Source: Coleofasciculus sp. LEGE 07092 (lineage in GTDB: Bacteria > Cyanobacteriota > Cyanobacteriia > Cyanobacteriales > Coleofasciculaceae). Taken from it: 38,392 bases of DNA. Below, in pieces: positions 13,153 through 17,334 of the stretch. The stretch's first letter is position 1. The number at the start of each line of letters is the position of its first letter. The position numbers and the translations under genes were made by a program. The stretch is from the NCBI RefSeq assembly GCF_015207375.1, contig NZ_JADEWY010000058.1:1-38392 (forward strand), given 5' to 3'. The notes beneath the pieces were generated by a model that saw nothing but the letters and a program-made list of their open reading frames with translations, had not been told where the DNA came from and made no database searches.

Positions 13153-14334
13153 TTGAAAATTGCTCATTTTTTTGTTAATAAAAATCGTCATAACTCTCGA
13201 AGGGTTCGTTCTTTCATCCTAGTCCTTGCCATGACGTTATCGGGGGTTGGTTCACTGTTAGTCCCGCAGAATGCGATCGCCCAAACCGCTCTAACACGAG
13301 CTGTGATTCAAGCCCTACGCAACCGTGTGCAGTTAATTCCTAAAAATAGGTCGGCTCGAGCTGCCCGCCCCTCGGACACCCTGGCAGTGGGAGATGCCCT
13401 CACAACTGCCCGTTCCTCCATGGCTCAGTTGCGTTTCAATGATGGTTCTCTAGCTCGCTTAGGAGAGTCAGTCGTCTTTCGTTTCGTTCCCGGCACCCGC
13501 ACCTTTCAGCTTTCCAACGGCACGGCACTCATGTTAATTCCCCCAGGTCGGGGAACAACAAGGGTGCGTACTCCCAATGCCACAGCCGCAATCCGGGGTT
13601 CAGCCCTCTTTGTCCGATACATTCCCGAAACCGATACAACGATTGTGGGAGCCTTAACCGATAGCGGTATTGAGGTATTTAACCGCACGGGTTCTCAACA
13701 TCAGGAACTAAAACCGGGTTATATGGCAGTCATTGTCAAAGATCGCATCGAACGCCTTTACGAATTTGACCTAGAGACATTTTATAAAACTAGCGAATTA
13801 GCCGCAGGACTCAACCTAGAACAGGTAGAATCAGCCGTAAGTTCCGATCAAGCGATCGCACAAGTTCAATCTGAAACCTCTCAAGCCCTGGCGGTGCAAT
13901 CACCTATCATTGGGGAAAATGTCATTGAAAATCCCAGCTTCATGACCTTACCTACCAGTACGCCCGATGATTTTCCAGCGGTCGATTTCAGCGCCATTGA
14001 GAACAATGAACCCACTGCTATTGATTTGAATTCCGACCGATTTGGAAACAATACAGACATCCGGTTGCTGATTGAAGGAGGAGAAATTCAAGCTGGACAA
14101 TCTTCTTCTAGTTCCGGTGGCGGTTCCGGTGGCGGTAATACTGGGGGTGAGTTTCCCGGTGGCGGTAATACTGGGGGTGAGTTTCCCGGTGGCGGTAATA
14201 CTGGGGGTGAGTTTCCCGGTGGTGGCAATACTGGGGGTAAGTTTCCCGGTGGTGGCAATACTGGGGGTAAGTTTCCCGGTGGTGGCAATACTGGGGGTAA
14301 GTTTCCCGGTGGTGGCAATACTGGGAATAATTAG
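13153..14334 (+). CDS. Exported FecR-domain protein with glycine-rich tandem-repeat tail
   Basis: This 393-residue protein uses a TTG start at 13153, supported by an A/G-rich ribosome binding site (AAAGGGGGG) about ten bases upstream. A signal peptide (basic n-region, hydrophobic stretch, cleavage near NAIAQT) directs it out of the cytoplasm. Residues ~55-200 form a FecR-like domain (LAVGDALTT, QLRFNDGSLARLG, RTPNATAAIRGS). The C-terminus, from ~residue 326, is built of decapeptides GGGNTGGEFP and then GGGNTGGKFP. FecR domains usually bind signal, sugar or envelope ligands. No anti-sigma or sigma factor gene is adjacent, so the classical FecI/FecR arrangement is not supported. It is divergent to the beta-barrel gene and followed by a terminator-like hairpin. 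Function is unknown beyond an exported sensor or binding protein. Confidence 0.85.
   Translation: MKIAHFFVNKNRHNSRRVRSFILVLAMTLSGVGSLLVPQNAIAQTALTRAVIQALRNRVQLIPKNRSARAARPSDTLAVGDALTTARSSMAQLRFNDGSLARLGESVVFRFVPGTRTFQLSNGTALMLIPPGRGTTRVRTPNATAAIRGSALFVRYIPETDTTIVGALTDSGIEVFNRTGSQHQELKPGYMAVIVKDRIERLYEFDLETFYKTSELAAGLNLEQVESAVSSDQAIAQVQSETSQALAVQSPIIGENVIENPSFMTLPTSTPDDFPAVDFSAIENNEPTAIDLNSDRFGNNTDIRLLIEGGEIQAGQSSSSSGGGSGGGNTGGEFPGGGNTGGEFPGGGNTGGEFPGGGNTGGKFPGGGNTGGKFPGGGNTGGKFPGGGNTGNN
14128..14331 (+). repeat. 30-bp in-frame tandem repeat in the FecR-domain gene
   Basis: Six full 30-bp units and one partial unit encode the decapeptide GGGNTGG(E/K)FP. Units 1-3 (14128-14217) use GGT-GGC-GGT and a GAG glutamate codon. 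Units 4-6 (14218-14307) use GGT-GGT-GGC and an AAG lysine codon. The final unit (14308-14331) is truncated just before the stop. Because the unit is a multiple of three, copy-number change by slippage or unequal recombination would alter tail length without shifting the frame. Confidence 0.97.
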
Positions 14335-14902: not shown

Positions 14903-14946
14903 AAAAGCCGACTCTAGTGTCTACATGCAGATAATATTACAGCCTT

Positions 14947-15102
14947 CTAGCAGCTAAAGAAGGTTACACTAACAAGTGATAGGCGATCGCTCCTGATTGA
15001 GTACGGTTCCCTCTGAACTTGATCATCATTATCAAGAAATTCGGCATAGTCTCTCAGTACTTGCTCCACAACCGATTTATACTTGGCTTGTAGAGAATCC
15101 AT
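14947..15102 (-). pseudogene. Decayed XisI-like remnant (with possible trace of XisH end)
   Basis: A 51-codon minus-strand reading frame starts at ATG 15102 behind a strong AGGAGG (15113-15118). It reads MDSLQAKYKSVVEQVLRDYA, resembling the N-terminus of XisI family proteins (fdxN-element excision factors, normally ~110 residues). A short SDRLSLVSV stretch follows, then a premature stop. In the overlapping frame the codons just before and across this ATG read EVIVRWI (15116-15096). That recalls the typical C-terminus of XisH, which normally overlaps the XisI start in this way. The remainder of both genes is not recognisable, so this looks like a relic. The rest of the gene-free stretch 14903-15292 shows no other gene. 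The family match is from memory of consensus patterns. Confidence 0.4.
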
Positions 15103-15292
15103 CGGACGATGACCTCCTGTGTAAACTCGAAGGATAAAGCATATAAAGTCATCCTCAATAACGGGATAGAACAGGGAATTACCAAATACTTAATCGCTAC
15201 AGGCATCCCACTAGCGTGAATTGTTCTTGTATTTCTCCCTAAAAAGCAAACTGCCGAAACTTCTTAAACTAAAACTATACAAGAGAGTTTTG

Positions 15293-16084
15293 ATGCCTAC
15301 CGAATTCACTGCTGCAACTTTAAGAGAACTTTCTATACCAGAGAGAAAAGAACTCATTTACCAGAAGACTTTAACAATTGATGCTACTCATATAACAGAT
15401 GAAGAATTAAATAAAGCATACAAATTGGCAAAAGCACTTCACCCAATATTAGATTCTTATTTTCAATATCAAATCCAACAATACAATCAAACTGGAACGG
15501 CTTTAGAATTAGAACGGCAATCTAGATTGATTCGTAGTAATATTGATGATTTTACCCATAATTTCATTAAATGGCTACAACAAGATTTTGAAATCAAAAA
15601 ATCTAAGACATTCTCCAAGCCTTCTAATCTCTTTGAACTTTGTGGTGCAACTTTACTAGTGACAAGCAACTCAGTAACAAGGACGCTGAGTACGAGAATG
15701 GGACATCTATGGGAAAAAATAGCTGACATTAGTCCTTATGTAATTATTCCAGAAGTTGAATTTGGAATCAATCTAAAAGGTATTGATATTATTTTATATA
15801 CGGATGGCGCAGTAAGTTTTGCCCAGTTAAAAACCCTTAAAGGTACATTAACAGGTTCTCAGGTTAGCAGGGCAATAAGAGAGTTAAGTAGTCATGAAAA
15901 CCCTTTATTTTTAGTAGCTTTTGATTTAGGGCAATGGACGTTTCCTGCACGTTCCGAAATTCCTCGTTTTGCAGGTCAAGCTTTTTGGAACAAAATTCAC
16001 ATGGATTATGACCTCGTTGAAGGTCAGGTAAAAAATATGTTACAGAAAATTGATCAAGTTTTTGCTGACTTAGCAGCTAATTAA
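15293..16084 (+). CDS. Putative type II restriction endonuclease of unassigned family
   Basis: This protein is 263 residues from ATG 15293, which follows an AGAGAG ribosome-binding-like stretch. An upstream TTG at 15221 in the same frame is less likely because it adds only a Lys/Leu-rich leader. I recognise no named family. The C-terminal half looks like a PD-(D/E)XK nuclease core. RMGHLWEKIADIS (~135-147) could be the helix with an acidic residue, GIDIIL contains D165, and FAQLKTLKG gives Q178-L-K180, where Gln replaces the usual Glu/Asp. The gene lies 59 bases upstream of a complete m5C methyltransferase in the same orientation, the usual layout of a type II R-M pair. It is AT-rich relative to neighbours and free of HIP1, suggesting recent acquisition. 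It could instead be an accessory or anti-phage protein. Confidence 0.65.
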   Translation: MPTEFTAATLRELSIPERKELIYQKTLTIDATHITDEELNKAYKLAKALHPILDSYFQYQIQQYNQTGTALELERQSRLIRSNIDDFTHNFIKWLQQDFEIKKSKTFSKPSNLFELCGATLLVTSNSVTRTLSTRMGHLWEKIADISPYVIIPEVEFGINLKGIDIILYTDGAVSFAQLKTLKGTLTGSQVSRAIRELSSHENPLFLVAFDLGQWTFPARSEIPRFAGQAFWNKIHMDYDLVEGQVKNMLQKIDQVFADLAAN

Positions 16085-16143
16085 ATGTAAAAGACGTAAA
16101 TTTGTATTATTATTTTTAGTGGAGTATCTTTTTTGTTAATAAA

Positions 16144-17334
16144 ATGGAGAACAAAAATATTTGTTCTATTTCCCTGTTTACAGGTGCTTTGGGTTTAGAC
16201 CTTGGTTTAGAACAAGCTGGCTTTCATACTATATCTGTCGTCGAAAAAGATGTTGATGCTACAAAAACCATAGCTCTTAACCGACCCCATCTTTGTCAAA
16301 GTGCTGTACCTAGGACTATAGAAGAAGTTAGCGGACAGGACTTGCTGGAAGAGGGAGGAAGAGTTTTAAATCTTGGCAGGGCTTTACAACCGGGTGAAGT
16401 AGAGTTAGTAACTGGTGGTCCCCCCTGTCAACCGTTTAGTACAGCAGGTAAACGAGGTTCGGTGATAGATCCTCGCGGCAGTTTATTTATGGACTTTATC
16501 CGCATTGTTAGAGAGGTTCAGCCACGTTTCTTTATTATGGAAAACGTGAGAGGATTACTTTCAGCTCCTATCCGACACAGACCGATTAACCAACGGGGGA
16601 AAGGACATCCGCCACTAGAAGCTGATGAAATTCCCGGTGCAGCTTTAGACGTTGTGTTAACAGAAATGAAAGCACTTGGATATAGCGTGGTTTACAATCT
16701 TTTAGAAGCCGCAGACTATGGTGTTCCCCAAAATCGAATGCGTGTTATCTTTATTGGTTCTAGAGATGGCGAACCTCTAACATTTCCTCTAGCGACTCAT
16801 AGTAAAAACGGTATTAAGTTACCCCTATGGCGAACTTTAAAGGAAGGCTTAATGGGGTTAGTCGATCCGCAGCCTGCGTTTATTCCTTACTCTGAAAATC
16901 GCCTCAAATATCTCAGACTTTTAAAAGCAGGGCAAAATTGGAGATACTTACCTGAAGAATTAAAGCGAGAGGCTATGGGAGGAGCTTTCAACTCAGGTGG
17001 CGGTAAAGTTGGTTTTTATAGGCGATTGTCTTGGGAAAAACCCTCTCCTACTATAACAACAAGCCCACACCAAAAAGCCACTGATATGTGTCATCCAGTA
17101 GAACTAAGACCCCTGAGTGTACGTGAATCTGCTAAAATCCAAACGTTTCCTGATGACTGGTATTTTTACGGTTCAGTAACGTCTAAGTATAGGCAAATTG
17201 GTAACGCCGTACCAGTACTCTTAGCGAAAGCGTTGGGCGATTATCTTTACAACTTGATTCAGGGAAATAAACCGCCAGGACGAGAAATGGTAGAGCAGCT
17301 TTCCTTTTTTTCTCATTACCCCAATAATTGCTAA
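16144..17334 (+). CDS. DNA (cytosine-5) methyltransferase
   Basis: The 396-residue enzyme has the full m5C methyltransferase motif series. Motif I is SLFTGALGLDLGLEQAGF near the N-terminus, motif IV is GGPPCQPFS with catalytic C95, and motif VI is MENVRG with E133. Motif VIII is QNRMRVIFIGSR, motif IX-like is RLSWEKPSPTITTS, and motif X is RQIGNAVP. The target-recognition region lies between VIII and IX (~215-300); its sequence specificity cannot be read from this window. It methylates position 5 of cytosine using S-adenosylmethionine. It follows the putative nuclease gene by 59 bases and probably forms an R-M cassette with it. It ends 47 bases before the convergent redoxin gene. No truncation is visible. 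Confidence 0.95.
   Translation: MENKNICSISLFTGALGLDLGLEQAGFHTISVVEKDVDATKTIALNRPHLCQSAVPRTIEEVSGQDLLEEGGRVLNLGRALQPGEVELVTGGPPCQPFSTAGKRGSVIDPRGSLFMDFIRIVREVQPRFFIMENVRGLLSAPIRHRPINQRGKGHPPLEADEIPGAALDVVLTEMKALGYSVVYNLLEAADYGVPQNRMRVIFIGSRDGEPLTFPLATHSKNGIKLPLWRTLKEGLMGLVDPQPAFIPYSENRLKYLRLLKAGQNWRYLPEELKREAMGGAFNSGGGKVGFYRRLSWEKPSPTITTSPHQKATDMCHPVELRPLSVRESAKIQTFPDDWYFYGSVTSKYRQIGNAVPVLLAKALGDYLYNLIQGNKPPGREMVEQLSFFSHYPNNC

What the first reader, a model, noticed from the sequence alone, without database searches (positions are those of the whole stretch)
15293..17334. Possible undescribed type II restriction-modification pair with Q-X-K nuclease motif
The 263-residue gene upstream of a complete m5C methyltransferase has D165 and Q178-L-K180 with a preceding RMGHLWEKIADIS helix. 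This fits a PD-(D/E)XK fold with Gln in place of the acidic residue. I cannot assign it to a named restriction family. AT-rich composition, absence of HIP1 and adjacency to mobile debris point to a horizontally acquired cassette.
Basis: partly seen in the sequence, partly recalled or inferred. Interest (0 to 1): 0.7.

Follow-up and report, generated by a model that had tools for sequence, protein, structure and literature searches.

The report
AvaII-like restriction-modification pair in cyanobacteria
Two neighbouring cyanobacterial genes look like a DNA-cutting enzyme and the matching DNA-marking enzyme that protects the cell's own DNA; the cutter belongs to a sequence family that the libraries searched do not name, but it is built like known cutters such as EcoO109I and AvaII, so it is a sound find of an ordinary kind.

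Summary
Window 15293-16084 (263 aa) and 16144-17334 (396 aa, C5-cytosine methyltransferase) form a probable type II restriction-modification pair. The 263-aa protein matches no family above cut-off in Pfam, and none in NCBIfam or PADLOC. Its AlphaFold model (pLDDT 92) is best matched by EcoO109I (Z 11.2). E141, D165, Q178 and K180 are invariant in 26 aligned homologues. A methyltransferase lies beside 37 of 38 database homologues. Glutamine here is not new: solved AvaII uses E123, D147, Q161 and K163, Gln161 binding the catalytic metal, and the helix-Glu to Asp spacing (24) is the same. Methyltransferases related to the window's are paired with SinI-, PmeII-, Eco47II- or EcoO109I-family nucleases, so the target is probably GGWCC (about 0.5) or GGNCC (about 0.35). 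Site-avoidance statistics did not confirm either: GGWCC is less depleted in carriers than in genomes without the methyltransferase. Best reading: an AvaII-like nuclease cutting G/GWCC, its partner methylating a cytosine there. A new sequence family of a known kind; nuclease activity and target are inferred, not shown.

The parts
15293..16084 (+). predicted restriction endonuclease, 263 aa, PD-(D/E)XK fold with Gln (E141, D165, Q178-L-K180)
15713..15715 (+). codon of E141, helix glutamate (AvaII E123 equivalent by spacing)
   Evidence: invariant in 26 aligned nucleases; AvaII residues
15785..15787 (+). codon of D165, metal-binding aspartate (AvaII D147 equivalent by spacing)
   Evidence: invariant
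15824..15832 (+). codons of Q178-L179-K180 (AvaII Q161-X-K163 equivalent)
   Evidence: Q and K invariant; aligned with QVK of EcoO109I-family members by hhalign
16144..17334 (+). C5-cytosine DNA methyltransferase, 396 aa
   Evidence: PF00145 1.1e-62; motifs; tree
16426..16428 (+). codon of catalytic Cys95 (PCQPFS)
   Evidence: invariant in 14 methyltransferases
16786..17103 (+). target recognition region of the methyltransferase (residues 215-320, bounds approximate)
   Evidence: 44-54% identical to methyltransferases paired with SinI-family nucleases

Best explanation
A type II restriction-modification pair. The 263-aa protein is a nuclease of the AvaII/EcoO109I structural group. It most likely acts as a homodimer on a 5-bp GGNCC-class site, most likely GGWCC, cutting after the first G and leaving 3-nt 5' overhangs. 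D165, the side-chain oxygen of Q178, K180 and E141 would hold one or two metal ions at the scissile phosphate, as D147, Q161, K163 and E123 do in AvaII. The downstream enzyme methylates a cytosine of the same site at C5 and so protects the host, while unmethylated phage or plasmid DNA is cut. Shown by computation: gene pairing, invariant residues, predicted fold, kinship of the methyltransferase with those paired with SinI, PmeII, Eco47II and EcoO109I-family nucleases. Inferred: nuclease activity, dimer, cut position, target site.
For: Invariant E-24-D-13-QxK in 26 aligned nucleases, against E-24-D-14-QxK in AvaII. Model pLDDT 92.4; EcoO109I is the only Foldseek hit under 1e-3 (2.1e-4, TM 0.44); VIA Z 11.2 over 190 residues, rmsd 4.3 A. 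A distant family member gives EcoO109I Z 10.4 over 187 residues. Profile-profile match to ten EcoO109I-family nucleases: Prob 91.5, E 8.8e-7, with the E, D and QLK on their E, D and QVK. Methyltransferase beside the gene in 37 of 38 loci and 17 of 19 genomes, sets that overlap. In the tree of 29 methyltransferases the three clades that hold our family's partners also hold those of SinI-, Eco47II-, PmeII- and EcoO109I-family nucleases.
Against: No Pfam, NCBIfam or PADLOC match above cut-off. Structural identity is only 14%; the aligner's note warns that Z under about 13 can be a common arrangement for largely helical models; AvaII (5.2), PspGI (6.0), Ecl18kI (5.7) and EcoRII (4.7) score among unrelated rows. 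For the distant member Foldseek alone found nothing under 1e-3 and ranked Ecl18kI first. Site avoidance does not single out carriers: GGWCC is avoided as strongly or more in genomes without the methyltransferase (0/52, 0/48, 1/44 seen/expected), and over whole genomes it is less depleted in the 16 genomes with a close methyltransferase than in 14 without (medians 0.134 and 0.157 for those with and without the nuclease, against 0.022; p 0.007). No biochemistry.
Confidence: 0.82

Rival explanations
1. Same kind of pair, but the site is GGNCC (or an extended form such as RGGNCCY) rather than GGWCC.
For: EcoO109I, the best structural match, recognises RGGNCCY (PMC7337904 passages). An Eco47II-paired methyltransferase lies in one of the three clades. 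GGNCC m5C methylation was measured in Anabaena flos-aquae CCAP 1403/13f (PMC8112702, passages), a strain that I could not tie to any locus here. GGSCC o/e in samples is 0.24, 0.60, 0.62, 0.87, 0.30 and 0.41 in six carriers of family f6, against 0.92-1.67 in six f6 genomes without an intact close methyltransferase; over whole genomes GGSCC is more depleted in 16 genomes with the methyltransferase than in 14 without (p 0.0008).
Against: That whole-genome difference goes when GGCC avoidance (AGGCCT counts) is allowed for (p 0.31). G213, a carrier, shows GGSCC 1.26 with GGWCC 0.02. The recognition region is closest to SinI partners (44-54%, against 38% for the Eco47II partner). Q-X-K occurs in AvaII, SinI-family and a PmeII-family nuclease, whereas EcoO109I aligns with SLK and the Eco47II relative has EIK.
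Confidence: 0.35
2. The nuclease is inactive and the methyltransferase is now in effect an orphan.
For: No nuclease match below E 0.09 in 7 of 16 genomes whose methyltransferase is at least 77% identical; remnant tail in G022; only 27 of 38 loci keep an open frame of 240 codons or more, some for contig ends.
Against: In the window the frame is open, full length, with every invariant residue kept.
Confidence: 0.08
3. Not a restriction enzyme but another PD-(D/E)XK protein, such as a nicking or repair enzyme tied to the methyltransferase.
For: Gln variant; weak NERD matches in 4 of 26 members, best E 0.01; XPF-type nucleases at Z 6-7 for the distant member.
Against: Fold and profile point first to EcoO109I; related methyltransferases have restriction nucleases as partners.
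Confidence: 0.05

Closest known systems
AvaII (GGWCC; PDB 6s48, 6g3b, 6s58)
   Same: Q-X-K active site with helix Glu; E to D spacing 24; helical N-terminal part
   Different: no AvaII chain listed in the PDB sequence searches; Z only 5.2; D to Q 13 here, 14 in AvaII
EcoO109I / PF14511 (RGGNCCY; PDB 1wtd, 1wte)
   Same: best fold match (Z 11.2); profile-profile Prob 91.5; some PF14511 members have QVK and pair with methyltransferases 70-72% identical to the window's
   Different: below Pfam cut-off; EcoO109I itself aligns with SLK; 14% identity
SinI family, PF09570 (GGWCC, recalled for SinI)
   Same: invariant Q-x-K, and an invariant E and D 24 apart, in 6 members; partner methyltransferases 40-46% identical to the window's
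   Different: no profile match to our family (Prob 0.4)
PmeII family (GGWCC inferred from P. mendocina and PmeII in PMC8112702 passages)
   Same: QIK and an m5C partner in the one protein looked at
   Different: a PF14511 member by sequence; its methyltransferase lies in another clade
Eco47II family, PF09553 (GGNCC, given 'without certainty' for a homologue in PMC10305163 passages)
   Same: m5C partner with a related recognition region
   Different: E-I-K active site in the one protein looked at

Membership tests
Type II restriction-modification system | separate nuclease and methyltransferase genes, adjacent | tested here: met
   37 of 38 loci; 17 of 19 genomes
Type II restriction-modification system | nuclease cuts the unmethylated site, methylation protects it | not testable with these tools
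   needs biochemistry
C5-cytosine methyltransferase (PF00145) | family match and catalytic motifs | tested here: met
   E 1.1e-62; PCQ, ENV, QxRxR and GNAV found, strict FxGxG not
PD-(D/E)XK superfamily | fold core | tested here: met
   EcoO109I 2.1e-4 and Z 11.2; distant member Z 10.4; predicted models, not solved structures
PD-(D/E)XK superfamily | strict D...(D/E)XK residues | tested here: not met
   Gln at the D/E position in all 26 aligned; known variant in AvaII
EcoO109I family, PF14511 | Pfam gathering score | tested here: not met
   window protein 13.8 bits against 22.5; other members weak, 9 of 14 with best E 0.0066, 7 of 26 with best E 0.023 at a tighter listing limit
EcoO109I family, PF14511 | profile similarity across the catalytic core | tested here: met
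   hhalign Prob 91.5, 151 columns
AvaII | E, D, Q-X-K catalytic set with AvaII spacing | tested here: met
   by sequence spacing, no superposition of atoms made
AvaII | homologous fold | tested here: inconclusive
   Z 5.2 and 6.3, within the range of unrelated rows
AvaII | GGWCC recognition | tested here: inconclusive
   avoidance does not favour it
SinI family, PF09570 | Pfam match or profile similarity | tested here: not met
   no PF09570 among the matches of 26 members; Prob 0.4

The most novel reading that the evidence does not exclude
Gln in place of the catalytic acid is a shared signature of enzymes that cut GGWCC: AvaII, six SinI-family proteins, a PmeII-family protein, a branch of PF14511 and this family carry Q-X-K, while the GGNCC-type EcoO109I (SLK) and an Eco47II relative (EIK) do not. 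If so, Q-X-K predicts the central-base preference, and unrelated nuclease families have been swapped repeatedly beside one lineage of methyltransferases while keeping both the site and the Gln. The sample is very small and most sites are assigned by family name.
Probability: 0.15. Interest if true: 0.55.

Novelty: new member of a known kind. Interest (0 to 1): 0.33.

Why it matters
It gives a testable identity (an AvaII-like pair, predicted GGWCC or GGNCC) to a nuclease family that the models in Pfam, NCBIfam and PADLOC miss, found in filamentous and bloom-forming cyanobacteria such as Dolichospermum, Aphanizomenon and Microcystis. Pre-methylating plasmids at this site could help transform such strains. 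Several unrelated nuclease families sharing one methyltransferase lineage make a good case for studying how restriction systems exchange their nuclease.

Tried and rejected
Site avoidance as proof of the target. It first looked good (GGWCC the most avoided of 32 odd palindromes in 6 of 13 carriers sampled), then failed its control: the six genomes without a close methyltransferase show 0.00-0.52 as well. In whole-genome counts for 37 genomes (42 searched; five with a 46-50% identical SinI-type methyltransferase, G005, G011, G014, G033 and G174, were left out of the comparison) GGWCC is less depleted in the 16 genomes with a close methyltransferase than in 14 without (p 0.007). GGSCC is more depleted in them (p 0.0008), but not once GGCC avoidance is allowed for (p 0.31). 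The p-values ignore kinship. Rejected as evidence for either site.

G022 and G064 were first counted as non-carriers; one search showed that both hold a methyltransferase 77-80% identical, so they were re-labelled 'methyltransferase only'.

Sequence search for a solved relative gave only chance-level rows. No match to the window nuclease in phages or plasmids, nor to two distant members in plasmids. SinI-family membership rejected. HIP1 absence as a sign of transfer rejected. HinP1I, which I recall as another Q-X-K enzyme, and the PD-(D/E)XK classification paper were not held. A search for Microcystis and isoschizomer names found no paper. I recall AflI as GGWCC, which does not square with the GGNCC motif printed for its strain; left open.

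Full report
What is there. The window carries a 263-codon ORF at 15293-16084 and, 59 bp on, a 396-codon ORF at 16144-17334, both on the + strand. The second is a C5-cytosine methyltransferase (PF00145, E 1.1e-62; motifs). The first has no Pfam match above cut-off, no NCBIfam match and no PADLOC match. Below cut-off, 9 of 14 homologues in one set (E up to 1) and 7 of 26 in a larger one (E up to 0.1) weakly match RE_EcoO109I; 1 of 14 and 4 of 26 match RE_TdeIII.

Homologues and pairing. A search of 386 cyanobacterial genomes found relatives in 19; 17 of the 19 have an m5C methyltransferase next to them (broken in G385), the other two being a contig-end fragment (G155) and a weak hit with stops (G262). 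A scan of the GTDB genome collection gave 38 loci, cyanobacteria except for Psychrobacter, Sutcliffiella and Parendozoicomonas; 37 of 38 carry the methyltransferase, the exception (L059) being a fragment. The two sets overlap. Three arrangements occur: tandem nuclease first (window, G300, the distant cyanobacterial group), convergent (most close relatives) and tandem methyltransferase first (L055). Pairing kept through re-arrangement argues for a working pair.

Invariant residues. In 26 aligned nucleases E141, P153, G163, D165, Q178, K180, T181, TLTGSQ 185-190, R193 and E197 never vary, down to 28% identity. The rows are the window and 25 of the 38 loci; three near-duplicates and ten broken or cut copies were left out, and L055 is partial. 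This is the residue set of a PD-(D/E)XK nuclease with Gln in the D/E place.

Fold. AlphaFold2 on that alignment gave pLDDT 92.4, pTM 0.88. Foldseek against the PDB gave one hit under 0.001, EcoO109I (2.1e-4, TM 0.44). VIA-align gave EcoO109I Z 11.2 (190 residues, rmsd 4.3, 14% identity), above the next rows, designed helical proteins at 7; PspGI 6.0, Ecl18kI 5.7, AvaII 5.2 and EcoRII 4.7 stand among unrelated rows. The tool warns that Z under about 13 can be a common arrangement for mostly helical models. A distant member (L047, 33% identical) modelled at pLDDT 91.0 gave EcoO109I Z 10.4 and AvaII 6.3, while Foldseek alone had nothing under 0.001 and put Ecl18kI first at 7.7e-3. Profile-profile comparison with ten PF14511 proteins gave Prob 91.5, E 8.8e-7 over 151 columns, with our E, D and QLK on their E, D and QVK; against six SinI-family proteins it gave 0.4.

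The glutamine is known. The section on the AvaII active site in PMC7337904 (that section read in full; other passages) states that AvaII holds its catalytic metal by D147 and a glutamine, Q161, through the carboxamide oxygen, with K163 and helix E123. Our E141-D165 spacing equals AvaII's (24), and D to Q is 13 against 14. The review PMC4081073 (passages) notes Q for E in BtgZI. In our data six SinI-family proteins have invariant Q-x-K, PF14511 members have Q, E, S or G at this place, EcoO109I itself aligns with SLK, one PmeII-family protein has QIK and one Eco47II relative EIK.

Methyltransferase lineage and target. In plasmids (4775 records with a match, 40 listed) nine records were opened: H2, H3, H5-H8, H13, H16 and H18; the best-scoring one, H1, has no annotation and was not opened. 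Six of the nine methyltransferases have a SinI-family nuclease beside them, one a PmeII-family, one an Eco47II-family, one none annotated. Recognition-region identity to the window is 44-54% for the SinI partners, 44% for the PmeII partner and 38% for the Eco47II partner. A tree of 29 methyltransferases gives three clades; our nuclease family occurs beside members of all three, and each clade also holds members paired with other nuclease families (PF14511/QVK; SinI; Eco47II, PmeII and PF14511). With the midpoint root, which is for drawing only, the window's clade joins the SinI-paired one. So nuclease partners appear to have been exchanged while the methyltransferase type stayed. SinI as GGWCC is recalled; P. 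mendocina GGWCC and the name PmeII are from PMC8112702 (passages), Eco47II GGNCC from PMC10305163 (passages, where it is given without certainty), AvaII GGWCC and EcoO109I RGGNCCY from PMC7337904. I take GGWCC as most likely (about 0.5) and GGNCC next (about 0.35).

Avoidance test, negative. In samples of about 100 kb (88 kb for G153, 188 kb for the window's genome) from 25 genomes GGWCC is the most avoided odd palindrome in the window's genome (61 seen, 142 expected), but also in genomes without such a methyltransferase (0/52, 0/48, 1/44). Whole-genome counts for 37 genomes show GGWCC less depleted in the 16 with a close methyltransferase than in 14 without (p 0.007); GGSCC is more depleted in them (p 0.0008) but not once GGCC avoidance is allowed for (p 0.31). 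The first of these runs against the lead site if avoidance were a guide; carriers may simply have gained the pair lately. The statistic is not used.

Gain and loss. Of 16 genomes with a methyltransferase at least 77% identical, 9 keep a nuclease match and 7 give none below E 0.09; G022 keeps only a C-terminal tail, and G149 has a short hit (E 0.099) beside its methyltransferase. Of 18 relatives searched for the neighbouring peroxiredoxin gene, the 11 loci fetched have no such pair within 1.5 kb, 10 of them keeping the second peroxiredoxin gene; the window's left-flank genes were not found there, so the empty site is not defined. The cassette is AT-rich. This fits a restriction system that is gained and lost often.

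Literature. The listings of searches (titles and starts of abstracts) showed no paper on this nuclease family; passages of PMC4390886, PMC10899764, PMC3459991 and PMC8262939 gave nothing on it. The library is partial and REBASE was not available, so 'undescribed' is not established.

Verdict. The glutamine, which was the surprising part, is an AvaII feature. A new sequence family of a known kind.

Noticed in passing
window 14903-15292, minus strand: A stretch beginning MDSLQAKYKSVVEQVLRDYAEFLDNDD resembles the start of XisI (Pfam E 0.12, below cut-off) and may be a broken XisI-type gene.
   Followed up: partly
L080-L084 (genomes G203, G195, G129, G039, G191): EcoO109I-family nucleases with QVK active sites paired with methyltransferases 70-72% identical to the window's.
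   Followed up: partly
G000, other contigs: The genome has 13 C5-methyltransferase matches, some of them fragments, and strongly avoids GGCC (o/e 0.02 in 188 kb).
   Followed up: no
L070, L072, L073: Open frames of 605-618 codons in which the PF14511 nuclease match lies within a far longer protein, possibly fused to its methyltransferase.
   Followed up: no
window 13153-14334, 3' end: Tandem glycine-rich repeats (FPGGGNTGG-like) at the end of this ORF.
   Followed up: no
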